Assembly (NCBI GenBank): GCA_017387685.1
Contig: JAFOEU010000102.1
Coordinates: forward strand, 1-46,975
Direction: 5' to 3'
DNA length: 46,975 nucleotides
Source of the DNA: Clostridia bacterium
Lineage (GTDB): Bacteria > Bacillota > Clostridia > Oscillospirales > CAG-272
Within the stretch, counting starts at the first letter, position 1; every line of letters begins with the position of its first letter. Positions 541 to 19,856 of the stretch are shown here, piece after piece. The position numbers and the translations under genes are program-made. Under the pieces are notes generated by a model, which ran no database searches, was not told where the DNA came from, and saw only the letters and a list, made by a program, of their open reading frames with translations.

Positions 541-1497
541 TCAGAATTTCTTGTTCATTTTAGCATTGATCCACATACAGATTGGGGCAATTATCAATAC
601 ATACACGGTCAATGCAAGTTTGTTTATATAGAATAATCTTTGCGCTGATCTCATTTCTCCATTGATCAACGAAGCCAATATCTCATAAAACGCCTCGAAA
701 TGAAATTCATAATCAAAAACATTGCCTTTCTGCGGCACCGCATCGCTCGGTAGATTCCCGGCAGCGCAGACTATCAGCAATAGAATAACAAACAGCAAAA
801 TCAAGAATATCCATTTGAGGTTGCTTTTGCGGAATCGGATGAGGTTTATAAATGTAACCGTTCCGGATAACACAAGTAAGATAACATACTGCGTCACGCG
901 CATCTGCTTTTTGTAATATACGATATCCGACGATTTTGCTTTCATCAATCGAAGCGAGAGCTCCTCCGGGACTTCACCGGCGCAAACAACCGCGGCAACT
1001 TTCAATTCACCGTAATCGGCAACCGAGGTGTATGGAATAAAGAAGGTATCGGTGAAATCAATTCCCGCAATATCCTCAAAAACATTCGTTTCGTCATCAA
1101 AAACCGCGCTGATCTTGTATTGAACCTTGTTGATCTCAACCGTGCACCCGAGAACATCGACGCTCAAAAACTCTTCAAGCGCGTAAGATTTGCTGACCGC
1201 AATAACGCAGTCACCTCTGCTGACAATTCCGCTGTCAAAATCTCTGCCAATTATGAGGTCAAATCCGACTGCATCGAGGAATCCTGCGCTTACAGCATAG
1301 ACACCGGTTTTATATTTCGCCGCAAAGGTACATGAATCCGAATATTTCTCAATCCCCGAAAGGGTGAATCCCGACGGACTGTGCCAGACCTTTATATCGG
1401 GATTCTGTAAAAAAGAAAGAGGTGGCAAAAATATCGGCAGTAATAAGACGATCAAGAGCAGAACAAGCGCGGATTTTTTAAGTATTATACGAAGCAT
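541..1497 (-). CDS. MacB-like periplasmic-core membrane protein
   Basis: A 318-residue protein. The start at 1497 is chosen because a GAGG site sits 5-6 nt upstream and the previous gene stops 8 nt before; an in-frame start at 1560 would overlap that gene. There is one N-terminal membrane segment (about residues 8-28), then about 170 extracytoplasmic residues with MacB periplasmic-core features (VSAGFLDAVGFDLIIGRDF, then a VLGCTVEINKVQYKISAVFDD stretch split over that fold), then about four membrane segments at the C-terminus. MacB/FtsX permeases work with a MacA-type adaptor, and a membrane-fusion gene lies directly upstream. Unlike true MacB there is no ATPase in this operon. Function in export or envelope sensing is inferred. 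Confidence 0.6.
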   Translation of the reverse strand: MLRIILKKSALVLLLIVLLLPIFLPPLSFLQNPDIKVWHSPSGFTLSGIEKYSDSCTFAAKYKTGVYAVSAGFLDAVGFDLIIGRDFDSGIVSRGDCVIAVSKSYALEEFLSVDVLGCTVEINKVQYKISAVFDDETNVFEDIAGIDFTDTFFIPYTSVADYGELKVAAVVCAGEVPEELSLRLMKAKSSDIVYYKKQMRVTQYVILLVLSGTVTFINLIRFRKSNLKWIFLILLFVILLLIVCAAGNLPSDAVPQKGNVFDYEFHFEAFYEILASLINGEMRSAQRLFYINKLALTVYVLIIAPICMWINAKMNKKF

Positions 1498-1504
1498 AGC
1501 CACC

Positions 1505-2377
1505 TCATTCCTCGATTGCCTCGGCGTGCGAGCCGAGAGATGCCGTCGTCGAGGTGACAACGAACTTATCCTTGCTGAAATTTCGTTTTATCGCGGCATA
1601 AATATCGTTTTCCTCGATCACGGTGACCTCGTAGCGGTAAATATCGTATCTGCCATCCTCAAGCGCTTCGGCGAGGTAAACATAATATAAATCATCCTTA
1701 TCCGTGGCAAAAAGCGCGGATTTGGGGATAACACAGTCGTGTGCATCTCCCTGTCTTGTCAGTTCAAGATCGAGACTATCGCCGAATTCTATCTTGCCCT
1801 TCGTGTTATCAAAGGCGAGAGTAAAGATATAATCTGTGTAATTGGCCGCAAGCGCTTTCGACTTTATTGTTCCCTTGATCGAGGTCGCCTTGCCGTCGCG
1901 AACGGCTTTGCCCTTGACGTCATCGCCAACTTCAAAGGTCTCTCCTTTTGCCTTTGGCACTGTTACGGTCACGTAGACCATATTGACCGCTTTTAGATAA
2001 GTGCAAACCTTCTCACCTGTCTTGACCGAATCGCCGAGGTCAAAATACAGATCAACCAGATACCCATCCGCAGGCGCAACAATATCGACTTCGTCTATGG
2101 TGATAATAACGTCTCCCTTCTTCATCTCGGTCATCTCGTTTTGATCGCATTTTGTTACAACTCCGTCGCTCTCACAGAGAATAACTGTATCGGGAGTTGC
2201 CTCCGCGCGCGCAGAAACCGAATAAGAATATTCAAGCGCACCTTCCTTGATCGTGGCAAGCGTCACACGCGGTGTTCTCAGATCTTCTATCGTCACCGAT
2301 GCGTAAAAGCAAACGATCATCAAAAGCAGAAAAGCAACGAGTAGAAAGAAAAATTTATTGTTCAGTAATTTAGTCAT
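1505..2377 (-). CDS. HlyD/RND-type membrane fusion (adaptor) protein
   Basis: A 290-residue protein with an N-terminal membrane anchor (about 9-27), followed by a barrel-sandwich (lipoyl-like) hybrid domain split around VIITIDEVDIVAPADGYL and GDSVKTGEKV, then a beta-barrel region. This is the plan of periplasmic adaptor proteins such as YknX/MacA, which link an export permease to the cell surface. The alpha-helical hairpin is almost absent, as in short Gram-positive adaptors. The gene starts 7 nt after the sugar-permease gene and ends 8 nt before the MacB-like gene, so all are one transcript. The partner ATPase is not present nearby. Confidence 0.75.
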   Translation of the reverse strand: MTKLLNNKFFFLLVAFLLLMIVCFYASVTIEDLRTPRVTLATIKEGALEYSYSVSARAEATPDTVILCESDGVVTKCDQNEMTEMKKGDVIITIDEVDIVAPADGYLVDLYFDLGDSVKTGEKVCTYLKAVNMVYVTVTVPKAKGETFEVGDDVKGKAVRDGKATSIKGTIKSKALAANYTDYIFTLAFDNTKGKIEFGDSLDLELTRQGDAHDCVIPKSALFATDKDDLYYVYLAEALEDGRYDIYRYEVTVIEENDIYAAIKRNFSKDKFVVTSTTASLGSHAEAIEE

Positions 2378-2384
2378 TTTAACC

Positions 2385-3188
2385 TCACACGGTATCTATG
2401 AATGATTTAAGCTTTTCCGCAAACAATCCGAAAAGCAGAAAAGGAATAATAAGGCAAAGCACACCCATCGCGTAATTCCGTCCCGTGCCGGAAACCGATG
2501 TAAATATCACCGAAATTGGCATTTTATCTACCGAAGTCAGAAAGATCTTCGGCGCCTCTACCATATTCCAGGAATCAAGAAAGATGAGCAGTGCTGCGGC
2601 AACGATGCTCGGAGCCGCGCCGGGAATCGCCATCTTTGAAAGAAGTCTAAAATCTCCGCAGCCGTCGATCTTCGCCGCATCGAGCACGGAATTATCAACG
2701 TATCGCATCCCCTGCCGCAAAATGCAAACACCGATCGTCGAAAAGATATTCGGCAGAATGATCGAGATCTGCGTGTCCATCAGCTCCCATTCCTTCATCA
2801 AGAGATAGTGCGGAAGCTGAAGTACCTGATAAGGCAGGAGCACAAGAATAAGATAAACTCCAAACAAGATCTCCTTACCGGGGATCTTGTATTTTTCAAG
2901 CGCAAATGCGGCGGGGATGGATATCGCAATCTGCCCGAGCGTGATCGAAAACGCCATCAAAGCCGAATTGAGCAGACCGCGCAAGAACTTGCTGTTCTCA
3001 AAAAGGCTTTCGTAATACTGCCCGAGCGAAAAATGCGAAATTCTCGAAAGAAGCCCTCTCGGCAGATAGTTCGGTTTAAGCACGGAATTGAACAAAAGTG
3101 AAACCATCGGGTAAAAACATATAAGTCCAACCAAAACCATCAGGCAGAACAAACCCACCCGCGGGAGAATTCTTTTCACTTTTATCAT
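2385..3188 (-). CDS. Carbohydrate ABC transporter permease (MalG type)
   Basis: A 267-residue inner-membrane protein with six predicted membrane segments and the EAA loop (AAKIDGCGDFRLLSKMAIPG) that docks onto the ABC ATPase. N-terminal FYPMVSLLFNS and the length fit the MalG/CUT1 subgroup, which moves mono- or oligosaccharides into the cell. It overlaps the end of the MalF-type gene by 4 nt. No ATPase is coded in the operon, as is usual for Gram-positive CUT1 systems that share an MsmK/MalK-type ATPase coded elsewhere. Substrate unknown. Confidence 0.88.
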   Translation of the reverse strand: MIKVKRILPRVGLFCLMVLVGLICFYPMVSLLFNSVLKPNYLPRGLLSRISHFSLGQYYESLFENSKFLRGLLNSALMAFSITLGQIAISIPAAFALEKYKIPGKEILFGVYLILVLLPYQVLQLPHYLLMKEWELMDTQISIILPNIFSTIGVCILRQGMRYVDNSVLDAAKIDGCGDFRLLSKMAIPGAAPSIVAAALLIFLDSWNMVEAPKIFLTSVDKMPISVIFTSVSGTGRNYAMGVLCLIIPFLLFGLFAEKLKSFIDTV

Positions 3189-4054
3189 GACTCCACCTCC
3201 ACGCGGCTTTGAATGAAGAAGAGTATACCGACGATAACGAGCGTGACGATCAAAATCAAAACACTCGCGGCTGCAAGGCGGTGATAATTGAGCGAGTGGA
3301 GATTGTTGTTGATGAAATGCTGGATCATATAGATCGTTTCATTTGGGTAATCTCCGCCGATCCAATATGCCTCGCGGTAAAGCTTGTAGGAATTGATGAT
3401 CGTGACAATAAAAGTCAAGAAAAACGTCGGCATCATAAGCGGAAGTGTGATCTTAAAAAAGCTCCGCACCGAGCCCGCACCGTCAAGTGCCGCGACTTCG
3501 TAATACTCCTTCTTTATCCTCACGCGCCCCGCAAGGTAAAGCAGGAAGTTGTATCCGGAATAGCGGAACACGAAAACGATAACGAGATAAACGAAAGAAA
3601 AACCATCGCCGTGCGTGTCGATTGGGGTCATACCAAGCCATTCGAGCGCGGAATTGAGAAACCCATTACTTACAAAAAACGAGTCAAGCACAAGCATCAC
3701 CGAAACAAGCGGCATAACGATCGGCATAGTCATCGCGACGGTGCAAAAGGAAGAGATCTTCTTGTTTCTGACTGCCGCCAGAGCAAGCAAAAGCGGAATT
3801 ATCAAAAGCGCGGGAATGGCAATGGCGTAGAATCGCAGAGTATTGCCGACCGCAAGTGCGAAAGCCTTGTTTGAAAAGAGATCGGTGAAATTTTTGAAGC
3901 CGACATAAACCTTTTCATTCACGCCCTCGGTGAAGCATTCGGAAAAATTATTTATGAGAGGGATGATGTAAAGGATCATTACGCCGACAATACTCGGCGC
4001 GAGCATAATAAGCGGCGGAATGATCCTTTTCATCCGTATAAAAATACGTTTCAT
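3185..4054 (-). CDS. Carbohydrate ABC transporter permease (MalF type)
   Basis: A 289-residue integral membrane protein with six membrane segments and an EAA loop reading EVAALDGAGSVRSFFKITLP, the hallmark of binding-protein-dependent sugar permeases. It forms a heterodimer with the MalG-type protein whose gene overlaps its stop. The gene begins 1 nt after the solute-binding protein gene. The whole order (binding protein, MalF, MalG) is the classic CUT1 layout. Substrate cannot be told from the sequence. Confidence 0.88.
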   Translation of the reverse strand: MKRIFIRMKRIIPPLIMLAPSIVGVMILYIIPLINNFSECFTEGVNEKVYVGFKNFTDLFSNKAFALAVGNTLRFYAIAIPALLIIPLLLALAAVRNKKISSFCTVAMTMPIVMPLVSVMLVLDSFFVSNGFLNSALEWLGMTPIDTHGDGFSFVYLVIVFVFRYSGYNFLLYLAGRVRIKKEYYEVAALDGAGSVRSFFKITLPLMMPTFFLTFIVTIINSYKLYREAYWIGGDYPNETIYMIQHFINNNLHSLNYHRLAAASVLILIVTLVIVGILFFIQSRVEVES

Positions 4055-4055
4055 A

Positions 4056-5462
4056 TTATTCGGTTAGGAAAAGTTCGAGTTGTTTTTTGTACTTTTTTAT
4101 AGCTTCGTCAAGGCTCATGCCGTTTGCATCAACCTCCCACGATATATTTGCCACCTGTCTCAGAGGGTCTGTGCTTACAAATTTGGGGAAATACAACCTG
4201 TTAATAATTGAATAATAGGAACCAAGAATTTCTTCGTCCAGATCTTCATAATCAAAGCTGTAGGATCTCTTTTTGTAATCTGCAGAAACTTCAAGTTCCT
4301 CGCCGTAGAAGACGTCTTTTATCGCTTCTCTGTGTTTGTTATTTATAAAGAGGGGTCTGTGCCATTCATCATCGGCGCAATATTCAAGGCTTGATGCATA
4401 TCTCAAAAACTGCATACACGCCTCCGGGTATTGGGTGTTCGAATTGATCGCAAGAGCATATTCGACTCTTGCTGCAACACCTTGACCGTCCATTGTCGGC
4501 ACGTAGGTTATTACAGGTGTGTTTCCGTTTTCAATTATTGCTGTGATGATAGTGTCAATGATCGGCAGATTACAATTTTGATAGTTATAGCGGTCGGTGC
4601 TGTAGAACAGTACTTCTTCGGCAAGAAGTGCACCGCACAAATCATTTGTATATCCTTTGTGGCTGATTTTCAAATCGTTGTAGCCACCGTTATATATATT
4701 GGGGAATAATTGAACATAACACTCCATAAAATCTCTGAATTCCTGACTTTCAAAATCTGCCGTTCCTTCTTTTTCGTCGATAACTTCAAGACCGACAGAG
4801 CGATAAAAACGATATGCGTATTCTGGGCGGTCAAAAACAGGCATAGAGGAAGCAATGCAAGACTCGGCGAATTCCTTAAAGGTTACACCGTCGCCGTACT
4901 TGATACCTTCCGCATCAAGAACCTCTTTCATTCCGATCAGGATGGGGAAAGAATAGAATATCGGGAATATAACGCGCTTTCCGTCAACGATGCCGTAGTC
5001 CATTGCATCTTGGTTGTAATTATCCCAACGGAGATAGTCATAAACTGCGTTAAGCTCGTCAATATCCGCAAACACACCGCTTTTGATATAATCGTATGTA
5101 TTGAAGAAGATCTCATCATTAATAATAAAAATGTCGGGACCGTTTTGTGCCAGAACATCTGCTGCAAGCTTTTCTTCGCAACCGTTGCGTCCGTCTTCAA
5201 GTACCGTAAGATTTACCTTTACACCGTATACGGTTGATTTAAAGCCCTTTACAAGATACTCAACCAAATCTATGGTTGCAGTATTACACATAATATTAAT
5301 TGTCTGATTCAGCGGCACTTCCGGCTTTTCGGGTTTTGCGGTTGTTTCGTCAATACTTAAAGTGGTTTCGGCACTTGTCTCCTCGGACTGTGCATCGTTG
5401 CAAGATGCGAGAGAGCAGAGAATCATAATAATTGCCAAAATCGCGGATAAAAATCTTTTCAT
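4056..5462 (-). CDS. Extracellular solute-binding lipoprotein (family 1 type)
   Basis: A 468-residue lipoprotein. The start at 5462 is supported by a GGAGG site 8 nt upstream; a longer in-frame start at 5591 would run through the operators. The signal peptide ends in the lipobox LASC, so the mature protein is lipid-anchored outside the membrane. A Ser/Thr/Glu-rich linker follows, then a fold typical of large CUT1 sugar-binding proteins (FIINDEIFF, GVTFKEFAESC, VEYALAINSNTQYPEACMQF). It should deliver a sugar or glycan to the two downstream permeases. First gene of the operon controlled by the LytTR-type boxes upstream. Confidence 0.82.
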   Translation of the reverse strand: MKRFLSAILAIIMILCSLASCNDAQSEETSAETTLSIDETTAKPEKPEVPLNQTINIMCNTATIDLVEYLVKGFKSTVYGVKVNLTVLEDGRNGCEEKLAADVLAQNGPDIFIINDEIFFNTYDYIKSGVFADIDELNAVYDYLRWDNYNQDAMDYGIVDGKRVIFPIFYSFPILIGMKEVLDAEGIKYGDGVTFKEFAESCIASSMPVFDRPEYAYRFYRSVGLEVIDEKEGTADFESQEFRDFMECYVQLFPNIYNGGYNDLKISHKGYTNDLCGALLAEEVLFYSTDRYNYQNCNLPIIDTIITAIIENGNTPVITYVPTMDGQGVAARVEYALAINSNTQYPEACMQFLRYASSLEYCADDEWHRPLFINNKHREAIKDVFYGEELEVSADYKKRSYSFDYEDLDEEILGSYYSIINRLYFPKFVSTDPLRQVANISWEVDANGMSLDEAIKKYKKQLELFLTE

Positions 5463-5511: not shown

Positions 5512-5639
5512 ATTATATCACAATTTTCGCGCCAAAATATAAAATGGGATAATTCGCGGCGGTTTTGGGATAAAACGGTCGAAGGTATCAATTTATCCCT
5601 GAAATGCTTGATTTATCCCAAATCACCCCAATTATCCCA
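5512..5639 (-). promoter_or_regulatory. LytTR-type operator array and promoter of the transporter operon
   Basis: The minus-strand -10 TATAAT lies at 5512-5517 without a recognisable -35. Exactly 27 nt upstream is the first of two TGGGATAA boxes (5545-5552 and 5566-5573, plus-strand reading, 21 bp apart). Three inverted copies follow (5593-5599, 5613-5620, 5632-5639). Paired short repeats at about 21-bp period beside a weak -35 are the normal site of LytTR-family activators such as AgrA and VirR. The same design recurs twice at 6405-6547 beside a LytTR regulator gene, so that regulator is the inferred ligand. Confidence 0.72.
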
Positions 5640-5650
5640 ACCGTAACAGA

Positions 5651-5677
5651 AAAGCACACCCGCTAAAGGTGTGCTTT
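5651..5677 (-). terminator. Hairpin after the orphan membrane protein gene
   Basis: A 10-bp stem (5651-5660 with 5668-5677) lies just after the stop at 5684 and is followed on the minus strand by TCTGTT. A modest U tract makes it a likely but imperfect intrinsic terminator. Confidence 0.55.
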
Positions 5678-5683
5678 GTGTCT

Positions 5684-6370
5684 TTAGTTGTAAGTTCGCT
5701 CCAACATCGAGCAAAAGCTTCCGATATCGTGAAAGCTCAAATTCTGCCAAGTCTCACCGCCAATCACCTGTGTCCAGGTTGTTTTGTCAAGGAAAAATGC
5801 CTTGAGAGGGACGGGATTGAAAATTACAATTTCGTGTACGTTTCCGCTTTGGAGGACTTCGACTCCCTTTGTGTAGATAGTATTACTGGGGAACTCGACC
5901 ATTTCTGAGTGTGTCAATTTGAGCATATCTGCGGGGATATTTTTTGGTCTGAATATTCTCGCTAAATTGATGTAGTGTGCCGCGGTGGTGTTAAGAAGAA
6001 TGTAACCGACATTCTTTTCGCTAACGTAAGCATCGGGAGCAAAAAAACGAAGGGTGCGGTTCTTTCCAAATGTCGTAAGGAATCTTACGTTATATTGAGT
6101 AAGCCCCTTGGTCAAAACAAAACAAGTCTCCATATTGTGTGAATCGAAGTTAAGATAACTGCCGGTCTTTTGGCATTTGAATCCCGCCCTCGCTGCACTC
6201 TTTTTCAGGTTCCTAACGGCTTTCGTTCGTTTATTAACCACTCTCAAATATCTGTAAATAAAATAGATCATCACGCATCCCAGAACTATCAGTGCAAGTT
6301 CTCCGAGAAAAACGATCCAATTGTATATCGACTCCCACATTTCATAGTTTTCTACTCGTGATAACATCAT
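5684..6370 (-). CDS. Single-pass membrane protein of unknown function in the LytTR regulon
   Basis: About 228 residues. Two adjacent ATG codons (6370 and 6367) follow an AAGGAGA site; either could be used. One strong membrane segment (about residues 14-38) is followed by a basic stretch (VVNKRTKAVRNLKKSAARAG) and a mostly beta-rich cytoplasmic-type domain of about 180 residues. I do not recognise the family. It sits alone between two operator regions, and its own promoter has the same box geometry as that of the transporter operon. It may therefore serve the same response, for example as an envelope or sensing component, but this is only context. Confidence 0.7.
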   Translation of the reverse strand: MMLSRVENYEMWESIYNWIVFLGELALIVLGCVMIYFIYRYLRVVNKRTKAVRNLKKSAARAGFKCQKTGSYLNFDSHNMETCFVLTKGLTQYNVRFLTTFGKNRTLRFFAPDAYVSEKNVGYILLNTTAAHYINLARIFRPKNIPADMLKLTHSEMVEFPSNTIYTKGVEVLQSGNVHEIVIFNPVPLKAFFLDKTTWTQVIGGETWQNLSFHDIGSFCSMLERTYN

Positions 6371-6404
6371 TATCTCCTTTCCGGTCTTACCCGACCGCAT
6401 CTAT

Positions 6405-6466
6405 ATTATATCACATATTCCGCCCAAAAGCAAAAAGTGGGATAATTAGTGCATTTTCTGGGATAA
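6405..6466 (-). promoter_or_regulatory. LytTR-type operator and promoter of the orphan membrane protein
   Basis: Minus-strand TATAAT at 6405-6410, then 27 nt, then TGGGATAA boxes at 6438-6445 and 6459-6466 (21 bp apart). The flank CGGTC-TACCCGACCGCAT-like sequence downstream of the -10 is shared with the promoter at 5512, showing that the two regions are duplicated copies. Confidence 0.72.
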
Positions 6467-6485
6467 TTTGATCAAAATTCTCAAA

Positions 6486-6547
6486 TTATCCCTAAAATCA
6501 AGCGATTTATCCCAAAATCTGCGCTCGAAGCGAATTTAGTGTATAAT
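6486..6547 (+). promoter_or_regulatory. LytTR-type operator and activator-dependent promoter of the two-component operon
   Basis: Two inverted boxes (6486-6492 and 6507-6514, 21 bp apart) face the plus strand and are followed after exactly 27 nt by TATAAT (6542-6547), with no -35. This is the mirror image of the minus-strand promoter next to it and implies positive autoregulation of the regulator/kinase operon. Confidence 0.68.
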
Positions 6548-6564
6548 TATAATAGCATAAAACA

Positions 6565-6593
6565 TTTACATTTCCGCGCCGATATGCTATAAT
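6565..6593 (+). promoter_or_regulatory. Constitutive-type promoter of the two-component operon
   Basis: TTTACA (6565-6570), 17 nt, TATAAT (6588-6593), about 28 nt before the regulator start. It would give basal expression in addition to the box-controlled promoter upstream. Confidence 0.65.
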
Positions 6594-6621: not shown

Positions 6622-7353
6622 ATGATCAGAATAGTTATCTGCGACGACGATCCTTGCTTTGCTACAACGCTGACCGAAGAGCTGACCGCGCTTGCCGCGA
6701 AATACGAGGGCGATCTCGATCTCAAGATCGGTCCCACCTTCACCTCGCCCGAGCTCGTTCTTTCGTTCATGGAGCAGATGGATTTCGACATTATCTTCCT
6801 TGATATAGATATGCCGAAGATCACGGGCTTTGATCTCGCGGCGAAAATATCCGAAAAGGATCCGAAAGCTCTCATCATATTCGTCTCGGCTTACGATAAT
6901 TACGTTTATCAGTCCTTCGCTTACAGTCCCTTCCGCTTTTTGCGTAAGCTTCATCTTAAAGAAGAGCTGCCATCCGCATTCGATAAGGCGATAGAAAAGT
7001 GCCTTTCGGAAACGCAGGCACTCTCATTTAACTCGACCGAAGGAAACATCACCCTCCGCCCGAGCGACGTTCTATATTTTGAAAACGACAAAAACTATTA
7101 TAATATCTATTGCGAAAACGGCGCGACCTACAAATGCCGCGGCACGATAAAGGCGCTTGAAAGCATCTGCACCGATAAGAGATTTTTCAAGATCCACTCG
7201 GCATATATAATCAACCTCGAGCACGTTTCGGAAACGCATAGCAGCTCCGCGGTTACGATGAAGGATGGCGCCGTCCTCTCGATAGCGGCACCCCGCCGTT
7301 CCGAGTTTAAGGAAACCTATATGAAGTTCGTCCGCAGGAGGTATTCAAGATGA
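6622..7353 (+). CDS. LytTR-family response regulator (AgrA/VirR type)
   Basis: A 243-residue regulator with a receiver domain (residues 1-125; acidic pair D9-D10, phosphoacceptor D61 in FLDIDMP, switch Ser in FVSAYD) and a C-terminal LytTR DNA-binding domain (about 145-240). LytTR proteins bind two short direct repeats one or two helical turns apart. The start has a GGAG site 7 nt upstream. Its stop overlaps the kinase start (ATGA). It is the obvious candidate to bind the TGGGATAA boxes upstream of itself and of the two minus-strand units. The usual conserved Lys of the receiver appears in FRFLRK. Confidence 0.92.
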   Translation: MIRIVICDDDPCFATTLTEELTALAAKYEGDLDLKIGPTFTSPELVLSFMEQMDFDIIFLDIDMPKITGFDLAAKISEKDPKALIIFVSAYDNYVYQSFAYSPFRFLRKLHLKEELPSAFDKAIEKCLSETQALSFNSTEGNITLRPSDVLYFENDKNYYNIYCENGATYKCRGTIKALESICTDKRFFKIHSAYIINLEHVSETHSSSAVTMKDGAVLSIAAPRRSEFKETYMKFVRRRYSR

Positions 7354-8639
7354 TGCAGATGTTCGAAGTTGCGGCAACACTTTTTGACTCGATCCTCACG
7401 ATATGGTTCGTAACAAGGTTTTGTAAGCTTGAAAGTAAAAGGAGATATCAGATCGGCGCGGTTCTGCTGATTTTATGTGTAACCGTTTTTTGCGACAAGC
7501 TGTTTGCCGATTTTAATACGGTATCAATATTGTTGTGCGCTGCGATCACCTTGATGTATACCGCTCTTTCAGCGTATAGCATTTCATTCAGACAAATACT
7601 TGCCGTATGTCTGTTTTGGGTTTCGCTGATGGCGGTCAGCAGCACACTTTTTATCGTGATTTCGATGATAACGCAGGATTTTGAATCCCACCTTATGGGC
7701 AGCGATTCGACGGTAAGATATATTTACGTTATTCTACACAAGATAATACTTTTTACGCTTCTTCGCCTGATCCTTGCCTTAGTAAATGTGGATGGCAAAG
7801 TTGGCAGATTGAATGCGGTGCTTACATTCACGGTTTCTGCGGTTTCGGTGTTTGGACTTGGCGCGACAATGGTGATCGCCACAACGGATCACGCAAGCAC
7901 TCTCGGCTCGCAGATCGCCGTGCTGATCGTTTCCTTCCTTTTGGTAAATATTATTCTGTATTTCATGCTCGCGCAGATTCAAAGACTGCAAAAGAAGGAA
8001 TACGAGCTCAAACTCCTCGAAGAAAAGACCGCCTTCGACAGCGCGCGTCACGAGGAGACCACAGCAGTTTGGCAGAACGTCCGCCGAATTCAGCACGATA
8101 TGAAGCATCATTTCTCGGTTATAAACGCCCAACTCGAGGCGGGTAAAGCCGACGAAAGCCGCGAATACCTTGCAAAGCTCATACCCGAGATCGAGTCGAT
8201 GGGCAGAGTTATCCGCTCGGAAAACAAGACGATCGACTATATAATCAATTCCAAGCTCAGCGCGCTTACAGATACTCAGATAGTAATCTCGGGTCTGATC
8301 GCAGATTTTTCTGACATCGAAGACCGCGACCTCGCCTGCCTGTTCGGCAACATTCTCGATAACGCCATCGAAGCGATCTCGGAGCTTGAAGAAAAACGGA
8401 TAGAGATCCTTTTCTCTGTCGAAAACGCAAGCCGAATGATCATCTTCAAAAACACGATTGGCAAATCGGTGCTGAAAAACAACCCCGACCTCCGCTCGAC
8501 CAAAAAGGATAATTCCTCGCACGGTTTCGGTCACAAGATCGTAGAAAAGATCGTCTCCGACCACCGCGGAATGATCGACTACTTCGAGGAAGGCGATATG
8601 TTCGGAGTGCAGATCATTTTCCCGGGAATAGCAAAATAA
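7350..8639 (+). CDS. GHKL-type sensor histidine kinase (AgrC/ComD type)
   Basis: A 429-residue membrane kinase. Six membrane segments fill residues 1-210; a coiled-coil linker leads to the phosphoacceptor H249 in RIQHDMKHHF, and the ATPase domain shows the N box (LFGNILDNAIEAI, about 331-343) and G box (SHGFGHKIVEKI, about 390-401). This is the architecture of kinases that sense peptides or envelope stress. It is coupled to the response regulator by a 4-nt overlap. No agrD/agrB-like peptide genes are seen, so the signal is unknown and could be linked to the transporter operon it probably controls. Confidence 0.92.
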   Translation: MMQMFEVAATLFDSILTIWFVTRFCKLESKRRYQIGAVLLILCVTVFCDKLFADFNTVSILLCAAITLMYTALSAYSISFRQILAVCLFWVSLMAVSSTLFIVISMITQDFESHLMGSDSTVRYIYVILHKIILFTLLRLILALVNVDGKVGRLNAVLTFTVSAVSVFGLGATMVIATTDHASTLGSQIAVLIVSFLLVNIILYFMLAQIQRLQKKEYELKLLEEKTAFDSARHEETTAVWQNVRRIQHDMKHHFSVINAQLEAGKADESREYLAKLIPEIESMGRVIRSENKTIDYIINSKLSALTDTQIVISGLIADFSDIEDRDLACLFGNILDNAIEAISELEEKRIEILFSVENASRMIIFKNTIGKSVLKNNPDLRSTKKDNSSHGFGHKIVEKIVSDHRGMIDYFEEGDMFGVQIIFPGIAK

Positions 8640-8653
8640 TATAAAATAAAAAG

Positions 8654-8690
8654 TAGGGTGTCGTAAATCTTTTGGGTTTACGACACCCTA
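8654..8690 (+). terminator. Terminator of the two-component operon
   Basis: A perfect 14-bp stem (8654-8667 with 8677-8690) starts 15 nt after the kinase stop, followed by TTTAATAAAA; the A-rich 5' side could make it bidirectional. Confidence 0.8.
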
Positions 8691-9001
8691 TTTAATAAAA
8701 AATCATAAGTTATGATTGATTATGAGAAAATTTACCTTCGTACAATAATTACAACCAGCGTTCCCGATATGTATATATTCCATCTCGCTTAAATTAGCAT
8801 TATATCGAGTGAATTAAGGTCTTTTGACATAGTTTTTCGGGGGATTTGACCGCCTTTTTCCGCTTTATCTATGGCGTCTACGAAAAAACGGTATCAAAAT
8901 GGTATCAATGATATCACCCGGAAGTACGGTTCTTCGGTGTAATTCATTATACCATAAACAAGAAGTTTGCAGAGAATTTAAGTTTACATTTTTGCATTGG
9001 A
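8691..9001. other. Gene-free stretch with a short repeat
   Basis: AT-rich spacer. The only feature I see is a tandem GGTATCA motif at 8890-8908, related to the repeats at 11107-11131 and 40039-40063. No start signals with ribosome binding sites of note. Confidence 0.5.
8890..8908 (+). repeat. GGTATCAAAA-type tandem motif, copy 1
   Basis: Two GGTATCA units 11 bp apart, differing at one position from the first 19 bp of the 25-bp repeat at 11107-11131. Homology here is shorter than between the other two copies. Confidence 0.45.
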
Positions 9002-9030
9002 AAAGGCGGCACCCTGCAGGTGCCGCCTTT
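9002..9030 (-). terminator. Terminator of the sigma/anti-sigma operon
   Basis: A perfect 12-bp GC-rich stem (9002-9013 with 9019-9030) 38 bp beyond the minus-strand operon end. The following minus-strand sequence is only moderately T-rich. Confidence 0.6.
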
Positions 9031-9067
9031 CCTTGTGGTAGTCGTCGAATGATTGGCGGCTTATTAT

Positions 9068-10339
9068 TCAACCTGCAAGCTCAGGAACTCCAATCTCCAA
9101 ATAGATGCTTATAAATTTAATCGTATTCATATTGGATATTTCCTTCAATGCTTCAAGATTGATGTTCTCATACTTAACAGACAACCAGGCAAAAGCACTT
9201 GTTTGATACTTTCTCGTTACGTTGATTGTTTCATAATTTATGTCCTTGAAAACTTCTTCGGATAAAGCTGTACTGCTTGTTATCGAAATCATAATTCTAT
9301 CTGTATCATACTGCCCTGCTACGATCATAGCATTGATTTTATCAATCAACTCTGCATCCGTTTTTGCAAATCGCGAGGAATGATCGAAAGTCTCACATTC
9401 AATCTTTTCAAGTGCAAAACCCGTTACATTATTCTCATAAGTGGGTATATCGCCCTCTTCGTGCTCATAATTTCTACGCTTTGCAAGACTTAACTTATAA
9501 CTACCCTTGTCTACCACTTCAAGATTCGCAAGCTTTTCTTTTTGAATGAAAACAAACAATTTATTGTTCTTAACGATAGTACACAACCCCAACTCAGAGA
9601 AAACCTTTTCAGTATCATCCACGTAGCTACTGTGATAAGCCTTGTATGCATCATCCGCCATAATTTCTAACTGTTCCGCTTCGGCAAAAACATTTGAACT
9701 ATCTTCCTCCACTTGAGCTTTGTTAAACTCACCGTCCACTATATAATTCGACAAAAGATCTTCACCGTAATATTCAATCCGTTGGTCGTACAGCTCTTTT
9801 GCCCATTTTTCACCTTCGGGAGTCCCTATCGTATATACCAAGTCACCGTACTTTAACACATCACCATCTTTTAGAAGTTGAGCGAGTTTTTCAAAAAGGC
9901 TACATTTATCTTCTTTCTCTTGCCTTATTTGAGCTACGGTTTTTCCGTTGAAAACAAATCCGTCCGAAAAGGTTTTAGATATATGCAACGCAAAGTATTG
10001 ATTGGGAGCCGCTCTATCCAATTTTTGATAAAGTGAATATGAATCCACGCGCCAACCTTCCCATAACGGTACTTGTATACTGATGTCGGGTGCATCCCCT
10101 ATATCCGTATTCCAAATAATATTGTCTATATCAGTAGGAAGTCCGAATGAGGGTTCATCCTTGCTTAACATCGGTATCACGATGATTGTACTCAAAATCA
10201 GAGCAAAACACGCCGCAAGCGAAGCCCATTTTACCCACCCGTTTCTTTTTTTCTTTTGCACCGTCTCGGCAGGAGCAGCCTTTGCGATGAGTTCGGGATC
10301 AAGACCGCCGAGGCTCCTATAAATATTTGTATTCGTCAT
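9068..10339 (-). CDS. Membrane-anchored anti-sigma-like protein
   Basis: A 423-residue protein. Short cytoplasmic N-terminus (NIYRSLGGLDPELIAKAAP), a Lys-rich patch, one membrane segment (about 37-58), then about 360 extracytoplasmic residues with no recognised domain. This topology, and the ATGA overlap with the upstream ECF sigma gene, is that of regulators that hold an ECF sigma factor until an outside signal arrives. No zinc-binding anti-sigma motif is visible, so the anti-sigma role is inferred from position. Terminated by the hairpin at 9002-9030. Confidence 0.65.
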   Translation of the reverse strand: MTNTNIYRSLGGLDPELIAKAAPAETVQKKKRNGWVKWASLAACFALILSTIIVIPMLSKDEPSFGLPTDIDNIIWNTDIGDAPDISIQVPLWEGWRVDSYSLYQKLDRAAPNQYFALHISKTFSDGFVFNGKTVAQIRQEKEDKCSLFEKLAQLLKDGDVLKYGDLVYTIGTPEGEKWAKELYDQRIEYYGEDLLSNYIVDGEFNKAQVEEDSSNVFAEAEQLEIMADDAYKAYHSSYVDDTEKVFSELGLCTIVKNNKLFVFIQKEKLANLEVVDKGSYKLSLAKRRNYEHEEGDIPTYENNVTGFALEKIECETFDHSSRFAKTDAELIDKINAMIVAGQYDTDRIMISITSSTALSEEVFKDINYETINVTRKYQTSAFAWLSVKYENINLEALKEISNMNTIKFISIYLEIGVPELAG

Positions 10340-10893
10340 ACGTCAAAGCCCTCCTTATGTAAAAATTCTTTCAGCTTCTTTCTTGTGCGGAGCAAGAGGA
10401 CGGTTACGGAGCTTTCTTTCATTCTGTACTCCTCCGCAATCTCGGCTACGGAGCTTGAGTACCAATACCGGCGCACAAAAACATTCTGCGTTTTGTCGGG
10501 CAAAGACCAAACAAACTTATTTAGAGCGTCCCTCAGAGCAACGCTCTCGCCAATGTCCTCTCCGCTGTCGTTGTCGGGAATACACTCGGCAAGCTCGTCA
10601 AGAACAAGCATCACTTGTCCTCCGCGCTTCTGCGTGTGGTATTTCTCATAGAGATCAAGCGAAAGCTGACGGCTTATCATCCCGACGTATGGCTTTAGCG
10701 GATCGGGGCGATTGGGTGGAATCGTATTCCACATTTTGAGATAAGTATCGTTGACGATCTCTTTTGCGTCTTCGTCATTTTCGAGAATGCGATATGCGAT
10801 GTAATGGCAGTACCGTCCGTACTTCTTTTCGGTCTCGGTGATAGCAGACTCCGAGCGCTCAAAATATAGATCTACTATCTGCTTATCTTCCAT
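10336..10893 (-). CDS. ECF-type RNA polymerase sigma-70 factor
   Basis: A 185-residue sigma factor. Region 2 (residues 10-75, with DAKEIVNDTYLKMWNTIPP) binds core polymerase and the -10 box; region 4 (about 125-180, LPDKTQNVFVRRYWYSSSVAEIAEEY then a helix-turn-helix) reads the -35 box. An AGGAG site lies 9 nt before the ATG. Upstream a minus-strand TATAAT (10989-10994) and a small leader hairpin (10942-10955) are visible. It is co-transcribed with the membrane protein that probably controls it. Target promoters cannot be named. Confidence 0.9.
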   Translation of the reverse strand: MEDKQIVDLYFERSESAITETEKKYGRYCHYIAYRILENDEDAKEIVNDTYLKMWNTIPPNRPDPLKPYVGMISRQLSLDLYEKYHTQKRGGQVMLVLDELAECIPDNDSGEDIGESVALRDALNKFVWSLPDKTQNVFVRRYWYSSSVAEIAEEYRMKESSVTVLLLRTRKKLKEFLHKEGFDV

Positions 10894-11062
10894 AACTCAC
10901 ACTCCTTTCGTGTGTTCTTGAAGGTCCTTCACCCTAAAAAACGGGAATACTCCCGCCCACACTACACTCTGACGAAAACTTTTTTATAATTATAGCATAT
11001 TTTTTCAAAAAATGTGTGAACTGATATAAAAATATGGGTGCCACAGAATCTTTAATAAATAG

Positions 11063-11088
11063 CGGCAGAGACTTTTACATCTCTGCCG
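11063..11088 (-). terminator. Hairpin terminator after the sigma pseudogene
   Basis: A 9-bp stem (11063-11071 with 11080-11088) followed on the minus strand by CTATTTATTAAAG. It lies beyond the repeat that cuts the sigma pseudogene. Confidence 0.5.
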
Positions 11089-11106
11089 TTGTTCATTATT
11101 CTATTT

Positions 11107-11131
11107 GGTATCAAAACGGTATCAAAAATCC
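11107..11131 (+). repeat. 25-bp repeat, copy 2 (junction of the broken sigma gene)
   Basis: Identical over 25 bp to the reverse complement of 40039-40063, with looser similarity for another 15 bp (to a shared GTGCCGAAA). It contains two GGTATCA units 11 bp apart and supplies the stop codon of the broken sigma gene. Confidence 0.7.
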
Positions 11132-11600
11132 GCTTTGAGTGCCGAAAGTCCGGTTACGGCGGCAATCTTTTTGACCTGCTCGGAATAAAAATATCTGCGC
11201 ACGAACACCAGCGCATCAAGCTTCGGCAAGGATTCAAGGAAACAGTCGATAAGGTGTCCGATCTCCGTCGATTCGTAATCGGGCATATCGGCGGGTATGC
11301 ATTCATCGAGTTCTTCAAGGATCGCGCTCCGCTTTTGTCTGTTTTGTGCCTTGAGGGCGTTCAATGCGAGATTTCTGATTATGCGGCAAGCAAAGCTCTT
11401 GAGAGATGCGGGCCGCTCGGGTGGGATAGCTTCCAAAGGCGGAGATAAAGGTCGTTCAGACATTCCTCTGCGGTCAGGTGGTCGCCCGTGATGTCAAGAG
11501 CAAGCTTCAGGCACAAAGCCTTGTATTTCTTTTCAAAAAGACTAAGCCCCGCTTCATCGCGCTCAAATAACAGCTCGATGATCCTCTGCTCGTCATTCAT
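11122..11600 (-). pseudogene. Broken ECF sigma factor gene (frameshift and lost 3' end)
   Basis: The minus strand codes for an ECF sigma factor in two frames. From the ATG at 11600 (strong AGGAGG site) region 2 reads to AEECLNDLYLRLWK; then one base is missing near 11430 and the sequence continues one frame over as EAIPPERPASLKSFACRIIRN through region 4 to LDALVFVRRYFYSEQVKKIAAVTGLS. The last residues (ALKADF) are not sigma-like: they come from the 25-bp repeat, which cuts the gene inside the recognition helix. Full-length relatives go on for about 20 more residues. Probably non-functional; a sequencing error could explain the frameshift but not the truncation. Confidence 0.75.
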
Positions 11601-11762
11601 AAGACCGCCTCCTTTCTTTCGTCCTTCATTAAATAAGACAACATTTTTTCGGATTTCTGACAAATAATTAAAGTTTTCAAGTATATAATACCACCTTTTC
11701 TATTTACAGTCAAGAAAAAACTCTGTATAGCACTAATTACCAGACGGATTTTCAAAAAAGTA

Positions 11763-17953: not shown

Positions 17954-18391
17954 TTATTCATACCTCCTTCTGATCTCCGCAAAGCAGCGTCTTGAAACGT
18001 ATTCGCGGTATCCGCAAGCAAACACGGCGTCAACTCCTCCGCTGAAAACGGCATCAAAGCGCGTAATACGCTGCTCGTTCGCAATTGCTGATTTGTTGAT
18101 ACGGATAAAATACGATGGCAAGATCTCCTCTAAATCGCGAAGTCTGTCACGGACGGTGTAGCGATCACCCGCCGTGTCAATTGCCACAACTTTTCTGTCG
18201 ATAACGGTTATGCATTCGATTTCAGCAAAAGCAAGCCTGCGCATTGCATTGTCGCGATACCCCACAATGCTGTCCGCGCCCGTGTATTCGCGGACGAGAT
18301 TTTCTATCTGCTCGCTCAGGGCAGACGGCGCGTGAACAGTCACGGTCACCGATTCCTCCGCATTTTTATCTATTATGAGTTTATATTTCAT
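17954..18391 (-). CDS. LytTR-domain DNA-binding protein without receiver
   Basis: A 145-residue protein. The start at 18391 has AGGA 6 nt upstream; a longer frame would overlap the permease gene. The N-terminal 45 residues are a short alpha/beta domain; residues about 50-145 are LytTR (ITVIDRKVVAIDTAGDRY, LEEILPSYFIRINKSAIAN). Without a receiver it cannot be phosphorylated and is probably controlled by the DUF3021 membrane protein coded next. It likely regulates the exporter operon it belongs to. Confidence 0.85.
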   Translation of the reverse strand: MKYKLIIDKNAEESVTVTVHAPSALSEQIENLVREYTGADSIVGYRDNAMRRLAFAEIECITVIDRKVVAIDTAGDRYTVRDRLRDLEEILPSYFIRINKSAIANEQRITRFDAVFSGGVDAVFACGYREYVSRRCFAEIRRRYE

Positions 18392-18399
18392 AGTTTTTC

Positions 18400-19131
18400 C
18401 TACTGCTTTTTCATTTGTCCGATAAAGCACAGCACCGCCGCCGCAGAAGCAATAACACTATAAATAACGATCGGCAGAATGTGCGCTCCCGCAGCCTCAA
18501 AATTACCGCTGAAAAGTGCTTTTTCAAATTCTACAGCGTGAACGAAAGGCAGTGCATTCGCTATTTTTCCAAACGCACCGCCGACGAGCTCGAGATCAAA
18601 CCAAACGCCTGAAAGCCACGCCGAGAGATTGGTCAGCAAAGCTCCGCAAATACCGCCGACCTGCTTTACCCCCAAAAGACTTCCGCAAAGGAGTCCGAGC
18701 GCGATATTGAATACCACCATCGGGATTATCCCAATCACGGCATAGATCACGTTCACTCTGACGGTCAGCCCGAGCGGGATCGCAAAAAGATAGCATATCA
18801 CCGCCTGCCCGAGCGCGATGGGTATGATCGGTAGCATATATCCGAGAATGAAATCAAATCCCGTCAGCGGAGTTGTGTAAAGCCTCTGCAAAAGCGCGCT
18901 TTCGCGGTCTTTGGCAGCCAAGGTTGCCGAAAAGAGAGTTATAAACGAAAGTCCGAAGACGGTGATGCCGGGAGTCAGCGTATCGATCTCAAACATACTC
19001 ACAGGGATGTTTGCTTGAATTGCGCTGAGAAGCAGGAGCAAAACGAGCGGAAATCCAAGCCCGAAGCATAGATTCAGCGGATCGCGCAATATTTCTTTCG
19101 CGCATCTTCTCGAAAAAGTCAAAAGCCTCAT
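18400..19131 (-). CDS. ABC-2 type exporter permease
   Basis: A 243-residue membrane protein with six membrane segments. The region LFSATLAAKDRESALLQRLYTTPL between segments 2 and 3 is the usual ABC-2 coupling motif. Its start overlaps the ATPase stop by 4 nt. Together they form an export pump, perhaps for antibiotics, lipids or peptides; substrate unknown. Ends 9 nt before the LytTR start. Confidence 0.88.
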   Translation of the reverse strand: MRLLTFSRRCAKEILRDPLNLCFGLGFPLVLLLLLSAIQANIPVSMFEIDTLTPGITVFGLSFITLFSATLAAKDRESALLQRLYTTPLTGFDFILGYMLPIIPIALGQAVICYLFAIPLGLTVRVNVIYAVIGIIPMVVFNIALGLLCGSLLGVKQVGGICGALLTNLSAWLSGVWFDLELVGGAFGKIANALPFVHAVEFEKALFSGNFEAAGAHILPIVIYSVIASAAAVLCFIGQMKKQ

Positions 19132-19856
19132 ACTGTCCCCTCCTTTACGATAGCAACGAAAGCGGATTCAAAGTCACAGACGCCCGCGCGAGCCTTCAGT
19201 TCATCGGCAGTTCCGACGGCAAGCAATCTGCCGTCCTTCATAATGCCGATCCTGTCGGAAAGTGCCTCGGCTTCTTCCATATAATGCGTAGTCAGAATGA
19301 CGGTCACCCTTCCCTTAAGTGAACGGATCGCATCCCACAGAGCGTGTCTTGCGATAACGTCAAGTCCAAGCGTAGGTTCATCGAGAAAGAGTATCTCGGG
19401 CTCGCAGATCAGCGCCATTGCAATACTGAGGCGGCGTTGCCATCCGCCCGAAAGCTTGGCTGCTTTTCGTTTCAAGACGCCGTCAAGATCAAACCGCGCG
19501 GAAAGCTCCCCGATCTTCTCTTGCGTTTTCTCTTTTGAAAAACCGTAAATACCGCAGATCAGCTCAAGGTTTTCTTTCACGGAAAGGTTCGGCGCGACCG
19601 CTGTCTCCTGAGGCGAAACGCCGATTATTCGCTTGACCTCGTCAGCTTGCCCGATTATACCGTATCCACCCACAAAAGCCTCGCCCGCAGAGGGCTTGCT
19701 CAAGCCTGTCAGCATTTTGACCGTCGTAGTCTTGCCCGCGCCGTTGACACCGAGCAGAGAAAACAGCTCTCCGCGCGCAATTTCAAGATCAAGACCGTCC
19801 ACGGCGGTTATCCCTTTATAACGCTTGGTAAGTCCGAGAGTTCTGATAGCATACAT
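19128..19856 (-). CDS. ABC exporter ATPase (ABC-2 partner)
   Basis: A 242-residue ATPase with Walker A GVNGAGKTT (about 36-44), Q-loop VSPQETA, signature LSGGWQRRLSIA, Walker B ILFLDEPTLGLD and switch His in LTTHYMEEAEALSDRI. This is the DrrA/CcmA-like subgroup. First gene of the operon ATPase, permease, LytTR, DUF3021. The upstream minus-strand region holds a GGAGG site and a TATAAT-like box near 19880. Confidence 0.93.
   Translation of the reverse strand: MYAIRTLGLTKRYKGITAVDGLDLEIARGELFSLLGVNGAGKTTTVKMLTGLSKPSAGEAFVGGYGIIGQADEVKRIIGVSPQETAVAPNLSVKENLELICGIYGFSKEKTQEKIGELSARFDLDGVLKRKAAKLSGGWQRRLSIAMALICEPEILFLDEPTLGLDVIARHALWDAIRSLKGRVTVILTTHYMEEAEALSDRIGIMKDGRLLAVGTADELKARAGVCDFESAFVAIVKEGTV

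What the first reader, a model, noticed from the sequence alone, without database searches (positions are those of the whole stretch)
5512..6547. Nine TGGGATAA boxes with fixed geometry define a LytTR regulon
Two intergenic regions carry nine copies of TGGGATAA/TTATCCC(A). At three promoters two boxes lie 21 bp apart and the nearer box is separated from TATAAT by exactly 27 nt (boxes 5545/5566, 6438/6459, and inverted 6486/6507). None of the three has a good -35. This is the layout of LytTR activator sites, and a LytTR regulator/GHKL kinase pair is coded next to them. It predicts one circuit for a sugar-type importer plus export adaptor, an orphan membrane protein, and autoregulation. The extra inverted triplet at 5593-5639 has no -10 behind it and may be a relic of duplication or a decoy.
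Basis: partly seen in the sequence, partly recalled or inferred. Interest (0 to 1): 0.8.

Follow-up and report, generated by a model that had tools for sequence, protein, structure and literature searches.

The report
LytTR regulon with paired TTATCCC boxes
A gut bacterium of the class Clostridia seems to use one sensor-regulator gene pair to switch on several promoters that each carry the same two short DNA boxes at a fixed distance; this is a new, well-defined member of a known kind of bacterial control circuit.

Summary
Nine TTATCCC boxes lie in two intergenic regions; three pairs at exactly 21 bp precede TATAAT by 28 nt (27 from the 8-mer), with 0.02 pairs expected. The same genome has four more such promoters outside the window. 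In 395 genomes of the family, box pairs plus a -10 occur at period 21 in 9 genomes and at period 20 in 21; reversed-pattern control none. The boxes follow one LytTR subfamily: box genomes that did not supply the profile carry it in 11 of 18 cases, box-free genomes in 2 of 46. Of 78 named homologue loci only the three closest have boxes; two of these are genomes already counted. Head-to-head pairs stand upstream of 13 of 27 regulator loci while the divergent gene differs between genera, so the inverted triplet is best read as half of a duplicated four-box operator. A second, box-free promoter fits basal expression plus feedback. Against: 7 of 27 box genomes show no such regulator and 8 of 27 regulator loci lack a clean pair. 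Binding is untested. New member of a known kind.

The parts
5546..5573 (-). box pair (TTATCCC-14-TTATCCC, period 21) of the ABC-importer/adaptor operon promoter
   Evidence: conserved in G155
5512..5517 (-). TATAAT -10 with extended TGA, 28 nt from the box pair
5593..5638 (+). inverted box triplet (5593, 5613, 5632; spacing 20 and 19) without a -10; second half of a duplicated head-to-head operator
   Evidence: all three boxes kept in G155
6439..6466 (-). box pair of the orphan membrane-protein promoter
6405..6410 (-). TATAAT -10 with extended TGA of the orphan gene
6486..6513 (+). box pair of the regulator's own promoter P1
6542..6547 (+). P1 -10 TATAAT, 28 nt from the box pair
6565..6593 (+). 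box-free second promoter P2 (TTTACA-17-TATAAT, extended TGC), probably basal
   Evidence: equivalent in 4 of 4 box-bearing genomes of the genus
6622..7353 (+). response regulator, receiver plus LytTR DNA-binding domain, 243 aa
   Evidence: Pfam Response_reg 2.3e-13 and LytTR 1.6e-15
7350..8639 (+). GHKL sensor histidine kinase, 429 aa
   Evidence: Pfam HATPase_c_5 2.9e-19; NCBIfam AgrC 2.9e-6 at 26.7 bits, cut-off 500
5684..6367 (-). orphan membrane protein, predicted target; 227 aa if it starts like its G155 counterpart (ORF open to 6400, 238 aa)
   Evidence: no Pfam or NCBIfam match; membrane nature read from the sequence
4056..5462 (-). extracellular solute-binding protein (ABC importer), first gene of the target operon
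   Evidence: Pfam SBP_bac_1 2.6e-11; start MKRF
3185..4054 (-). ABC permease
   Evidence: Pfam BPD_transp_1 8.7e-12
2385..3188 (-). ABC permease
   Evidence: Pfam BPD_transp_1 1.3e-10
1505..2377 (-). HlyD/RND-type adaptor protein
   Evidence: NCBIfam RND_mfp 4.5e-23, 81.7 bits, below its cut-off of 94.9
541..1560 (-). MacB periplasmic-core-like membrane protein; no ATPase domain matched
   Evidence: Pfam MacB_PCD 5.2e-7

Best explanation
The boxes are half-sites of an operator for the LytTR response regulator coded at 6622-7353, phosphorylated by the GHKL kinase coded next to it. A dimer would sit on two TTATCCC half-sites 21 bp (two helical turns) apart, ending 28 nt upstream of a mostly extended -10 (TGnTATAAT), and stand in for a weak or missing -35 to recruit RNA polymerase. 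In this genome it would switch on seven promoters: its own operon, the divergent membrane protein, the importer/adaptor/MacB-like operon, and four unlinked loci (small membrane proteins, secreted proteins, and less surely an ECF sigma-factor series). A separate box-free promoter gives basal regulator, so the P1 boxes close a positive feedback loop. Shown: box geometry, its recurrence, and its tracking of this regulator subfamily. Inferred: binding, phosphorylation, activation rather than repression, and the signal (unknown; no AgrB gene matched in the draft genome).
For: Three exact pairs in the window against 0.02 expected. Seven promoters in G000 at period exactly 21, reversed control 0. Gap to TATAAT exactly 28 nt in 25 of 28 distinct sites in held loci although 24-31 was allowed. 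In the genus, boxes occur in 4 of 13 genomes, the same 4 that hold the regulator at 70% identity or more (Fisher 0.0014). Of 20 regulator loci at 36% identity or more, 13 have a pair with up to 2 mismatches at period 19-21 within 450 bp (0.3 expected from shuffles); of 22 more distant LytTR loci, 4 (0.23 expected). Regulator profile at 200 bits or more: 20 of 27 box genomes and 7 of 51 box-free ones; leaving out genomes that supplied the profile, 11 of 18 against 2 of 46 (Fisher 2.6e-6), and among the 13 first seen with boxes, 8 of 13 (Fisher 2e-5). Of 78 named homologue loci only the three closest (46, 41, 37%) have boxes. The divergent gene differs between genera while boxes and regulator stay. 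Geometry matches published LytTR sites: 9-11-nt repeats with 11-13 bp between (PMC4847170, passages), just upstream of the -35 (PMC6193735, passages).
Against: No binding or expression data. Seven of 27 box-bearing genomes show no subfamily regulator at 200 bits (G012, G123, G039, G260, G060, G215, G075); the 200-bit line was drawn after seeing the scores. G012 has five pairs but only LytTR proteins of 27-30% identity. G123 has the boxes before a kinase remnant and no regulator found. G023, G204, G112 and G027 hold the regulator without clean upstream boxes, as does the 57% paralogue in G228. Without the -10 in the pattern, one search found matches in 10 of 196 genomes, and 7 of these 10 look like chance or coding hits apart from G077's; its reversed control found 2. 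G000 has two other LytTR proteins that could share the boxes. Related genomes are not independent samples.
Confidence: 0.85

Rival explanations
1. The boxes are bound by a different transcription factor, coded elsewhere, that happens to control the regulator operon; the LytTR protein is only a target.
For: Five box genomes (G039, G260, G060, G215, G075) have no subfamily regulator at 200 bits and no explanation, and G012 has several pairs with only distant LytTR proteins. Three order-level box loci (G413, G467, G528) have no subfamily regulator within the 12 kb taken.
Against: Presence and absence follow this LytTR subfamily. The divergent neighbour differs between genera while the regulator stays. 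Two-turn direct repeats just upstream of the promoter are the published LytTR geometry (passages).
Confidence: 0.08
2. The regulator represses rather than activates these promoters.
For: Most sites have a strong extended -10 (T and G each in 25 of 28), which can work without an activator (general knowledge); G327's regulator promoter also has a fair -35, TTGAAA.
Against: The boxes end 28 nt upstream of the -10 and so do not cover the core promoter; the three window promoters have no good -35; the position resembles AgrA upstream of P2 and P3 (PMC4227749, passages).
Confidence: 0.1
3. The boxes and their spread are a copied promoter cassette or repeat family with no binding function.
For: The two window regions are duplicates, 74.3% identical. 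A 6.1-kb contig with a box promoter is 99.3% identical between genomes assigned to different families, so DNA with these boxes moves or contaminates.
Against: 28 non-redundant sites share mainly boxes, A-tract and -10; spacing is fixed; sites lie in front of unrelated genes.
Confidence: 0.03

Closest known systems
Staphylococcus aureus agr P2/P3 (AgrA)
   Same: LytTR response regulator with its kinase; a pair of direct repeats upstream of each of two divergent promoters with suboptimal spacers; activation of its own operon (PMC4227749, passages).
   Different: No AgrB match in 13 of 13 genomes of the genus; different half-site; the two pairs lie close together (5' ends 9, 19-21 or 31 bp apart); seven box promoters in one genome.
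Clostridium perfringens VirR/VirS regulon
   Same: Two-component regulon with several targets in a clostridium (PMC2838878 and PMC2688746, search listings with start of abstract).
   Different: Target genes differ (toxin genes there). The VirR box was not compared in any call.
LytTR Regulatory Systems (HdrRM, BrsRM)
   Same: Two direct repeats with 11-13 bp between them upstream of the promoter, autoregulation, a putative extended -10 at hdrRM (PMC6193735, passages).
   Different: Those pair the LytTR protein with a membrane inhibitor; here a receiver domain and a kinase are present, and the half-site is TTATCCC rather than ACCnCTTAT-like.
E. coli YpdA/YpdB
   Same: Kinase/LytTR regulator with paired direct repeats (PMC4847170, passages).
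   Different: Different half-site (GGCATTTCAT); no four-box arrangement in the passages seen.

Membership tests
LytTR-type two-component response regulator | receiver domain followed by LytTR DNA-binding domain | tested here: met
   Pfam PF00072 2.3e-13 and PF04397 1.6e-15, both above cut-off
LytTR-type two-component response regulator | GHKL histidine kinase coded in the same operon | tested here: met
   PF14501 2.9e-19 at 7350-8639, overlapping the regulator's stop
LytTR direct-repeat operator | two direct repeats about two helical turns apart just upstream of the promoter | tested here: met
   geometry from passages of PMC6193735 and PMC4847170
LytTR direct-repeat operator | bound by the LytTR protein | not testable with these tools
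   only co-occurrence was tested
agr quorum-sensing system | agrB peptidase gene present | tested here: not met
   no PF04647 match in any of 13 genomes of the genus; drafts, G000 about 85% complete. agrD was not searched for
agr quorum-sensing system | regulator is an AgrA equivalog | tested here: not met
   NCBIfam AgrA 44.4 bits against cut-off 400; the cut-off model is built for staphylococcal-type AgrA (recalled)
LytTR Regulatory System (LRS) | LytTR protein paired with a membrane inhibitor instead of a kinase | tested here: not met
   receiver domain and GHKL kinase present

The most novel reading that the evidence does not exclude
The four-box head-to-head operator is a unit of its own: two regulator dimers held on the same face of the helix (5' ends 9, 19-21 or 31 bp apart, about one turn between classes) cooperate as a tetramer. 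It would fire whichever divergent gene has landed beside it, so the operator, not the neighbouring gene, is the conserved element of a portable agr-like circuit that has no agr peptide genes and senses an envelope or transport signal.
Probability: 0.25. Interest if true: 0.6.

Novelty: new member of a known kind. Interest (0 to 1): 0.42.

Why it matters
It gives a regulator, a half-site, a promoter geometry and a gene list in uncultured gut Clostridia (the three closest named relatives are MAGs from roe deer cecum, water deer rectum and a 'Lapin' sample). The strict spacing makes regulon members findable by pattern alone. Predicted targets include ABC exporters, an ABC-FtsX transporter, a CAAX-type protease, small membrane proteins and ECF sigma factors, which points to a testable role in export or envelope response.

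Tried and rejected
Rejected: chance (0.02 pairs expected in the window; reversed-pattern control 0, but 2, whose pattern lacked the -10). Rejected: boxes specific to the divergent membrane protein, whose relatives were found only in loci of the four box-bearing genomes of this genus (tblastn over held loci). Rejected: a full agr system (no AgrB match). AgrB genes do lie near the regulator homologues of G023 and G077; neither has a clean upstream pair, though G077 has an exact pair farther downstream. Rejected: decoy as the main reading of the triplet, because head-to-head pairs recur in 13 of 27 loci and the triplet boxes persist in G155. Led nowhere: a PDB sequence search matched only the receiver part, within residues 1-132. 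Paper searches for TTATCCC with 'response regulator' (47 papers, 15 listed), LytTR regulons in Clostridia (113 papers, 15 listed) and LytTR with rumen or metagenome terms (1 paper) showed no report of this box in the listings; the papers were not opened for this. Not done: structure prediction. The five TTATCCC outside the two regions (1725, 5020, 18726, 19808, 23248) are at chance number and were not followed.

Full report
Observation. The window holds 14 exact TTATCCC, with 5.8 expected and 0 of 100 shuffles reaching 14; nine lie in two intergenic stretches. Pairs at period 21: 3 found, all exact, 0.02 expected. In all three the gap from TTATCCC to TATAAT is 28 nt and the hexamer at the -35 position is poor: ATATTT, TTGCTT, CTGCGC. 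The two stretches are copies of each other, 74.3% identical over 148 aligned positions.

The genome. G000 has 2.58 Mb in 116 contigs and is about 85% complete. TTATCCCN{12,16}TTATCCC occurs 9 times, the reversed control 0 times; seven are at period exactly 21, four of them outside the window, and the other two are overlaps inside the triplet. All seven are followed by TATAAT with a gap of 27-29 nt. The nearest downstream genes are a 214-aa protein with membrane segments (C24), a 121-aa membrane-like protein followed by a MutS-domain-V protein (C47), and two paralogous secreted-looking proteins of 467 and 488 aa (C63). At the second C47 site a series of ECF sigma factor, LRR protein and pilin-like protein begins about 480 nt downstream, so its membership is less sure. 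In G228 (9 sites) the nearest genes are the divergent membrane protein, the regulator, two ABC exporters in a row, an ABC protein followed by an ABC-FtsX protein, a small protein plus CAAX-type protease, an ECF sigma factor, an HTH protein, a 175-aa protein without a family, and, about 1 kb downstream, a MoxR-type ATPase.

Geometry. In 395 genomes of the family the period-21 pattern with TATAAT 24-31 nt on is found in 9 genomes, 33 sites, control 0. Of the 28 distinct sites in held loci, 25 have a gap of 28, two 29 and one 27. Twenty-eight non-redundant sites chosen for gap 28 give the consensus TTATCCC-A-tract...TTATCCC...TGnTATAAT, with T and G of the extended -10 each in 25 of 28; one of these (G529) is probably chance. 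A period-20 pattern with TATAAT or TATACT finds 21 of 395 genomes, 37 matches, control 0; some single matches (for example G039) look like chance, and several others carry a TTGAC-like -35 (G241 C19, G293 C4), so not every box promoter lacks one. The period-21 pattern without a -10 matched 10 of 196 genomes, 24 places, with 2 reversed-control matches; 17 of the 24 are in G000, G155 and G012 plus one in G077 near its regulator homologue, and most of the rest look like chance or coding hits. In the order, 10 of 394 genomes match at period 20-21, control 0; at least two (G529, G630) look like chance. Of the eight matching genomes outside the family, G518 and G676 have the regulator subfamily within about 1.5 kb; G413, G467 and G528 have none in the 12 kb taken and G599 none in its 6.1-kb contig.

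Which protein. Within the genus, 4 of 13 genomes have sites and the same 4 hold the regulator at 70% identity or more; G112 has a 35% homologue and no sites, and eight have neither. Upstream regions of 20 regulator loci at 36% identity or more: 13 have a pair with up to 2 mismatches at period 19-21, with 0.3 expected from shuffles. Of 23 loci at 35% or less, one could not be tested; 4 of 22 have one, with 0.23 expected (13 of 20 against 4 of 22, Fisher 0.004). So some more distant relatives also seem to use such boxes. With a profile of 16 subfamily members (A1), 20 of 27 box genomes and 7 of 51 box-free genomes reach 200 bits. I chose the 78 genomes by hand: all 27 box genomes, and controls mostly from the same genera, five of which (G027, G045, G078, G096, G182) had supplied the profile. 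The 200-bit line was drawn after seeing the scores. Leaving out profile genomes on both sides gives 11 of 18 against 2 of 46 (Fisher 2.6e-6). Among the 13 first seen with boxes and outside the profile, 8 have the regulator (Fisher 2e-5), six of them with a site within 250 bp of its start (G217, G329, G342, G288, G360, G220). Of 78 with enough upstream DNA, the three closest relatives have pairs and the other 75 do not; L210, fourth by identity (36%), was one of the two without upstream DNA. L207 and L208 have the contig lengths of G342 and G117 contigs, so only L209 is a new positive; the 75 negatives are the new part.

Exceptions. Box genomes without the subfamily regulator at 200 bits: G012, G123, G039, G260, G060, G215, G075. 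In G123 the site sits before a kinase remnant with no regulator found. In G012 two of the sites and a 27% LytTR gene lie at contig ends. Regulator loci without a clean pair within 700 bp: G342 (C25 copy), G027, G182, G096, G290, G023, G204, G112, that is 8 of 27. G182 and G096 have pairs with 2 mismatches; G342 has a site beside its second copy; G290 has a site about 700 bp upstream; G027 shows GGGACA variants by eye. The 57% paralogue in G228 has no boxes.

The inverted boxes. Upstream of the regulator, 13 of 27 loci have one pair pointing each way, not always with a recognised -10 on both sides. Their 5' ends are 9 bp (G171), 19-21 bp (11 genomes) or 31 bp (G045) apart, about one helical turn between classes; with so few classes this is suggestive only. 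Relatives of the divergent membrane protein were found only in the four box-bearing genomes of this genus; other genera have unrelated frames there. The importer region shows the same layout with the second half changed to three boxes at 20 and 19 bp and no -10. G155, 87.9% identical over 8 kb, keeps all three boxes. I read it as the second half of a duplicated operator, either partly decayed or still helping the importer promoter.

Feedback. The regulator has a second promoter without boxes (TTTACA-17-TATAAT, 6565-6593); equivalents (TTTACA or TTTACT, 17 bp, extended -10) stand at the same place in 4 of 4 box-bearing genomes of the genus. In G327 the box promoter itself also has a fair -35, TTGAAA. 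Basal regulator from P2 plus activated P1 is the simplest reading (inference).

Known systems. LytTR sites are two repeats of 9-11 nt with 11-13 bp between them and no common consensus (PMC4847170, passages; PMC6193735, passages). The agr P2/P3 region has AgrA repeats upstream of two divergent promoters (PMC4227749, passages). The present case matches in kind. It is not agr as tested: no AgrB match in 13 of 13 genomes of the genus and 44 bits against a cut-off of 400 for AgrA. I saw no report of this box in the listings.

Status of steps. Shown by computation: boxes, spacing, promoter geometry, recurrence, association with the subfamily, duplicated operator. Inferred: binding, phosphorylation, activation, cooperation of four boxes, signal and function.

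Noticed in passing
window 17954-19856 (-): A second, short LytTR protein (158 aa; LytTR match) follows what look like an ABC permease and ATPase (read from the ORFs, not tested); the boxes near it (18726, 19808) are single.
   Followed up: no
window 9068-11663 (-): Frames that look like two sigma factors and an anti-sigma protein (read from the ORFs, not tested) lie just downstream of the kinase; no period-21 box pair there.
   Followed up: no
L145 (G599) against L125 (G290) and L149 (G123): A whole 6.1-kb contig with a box promoter is 99.3% identical between genomes assigned to different families: recent transfer or binning contamination.
   Followed up: partly
L149 about 6950-9500 (G123): Box promoter retained in front of a kinase remnant, with no regulator found.
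   Followed up: partly
L039 (G023) and L041 (G077), upstream of the regulator: Short AgrD-like peptide frames (likeness recalled) near AgrB genes beside more distant members of the regulator subfamily.
   Followed up: partly
L091 (G228:C32) and L099 (G228:C43): G228 has two regulator copies, one with boxes (70% identity) and one without (57%).
   Followed up: no
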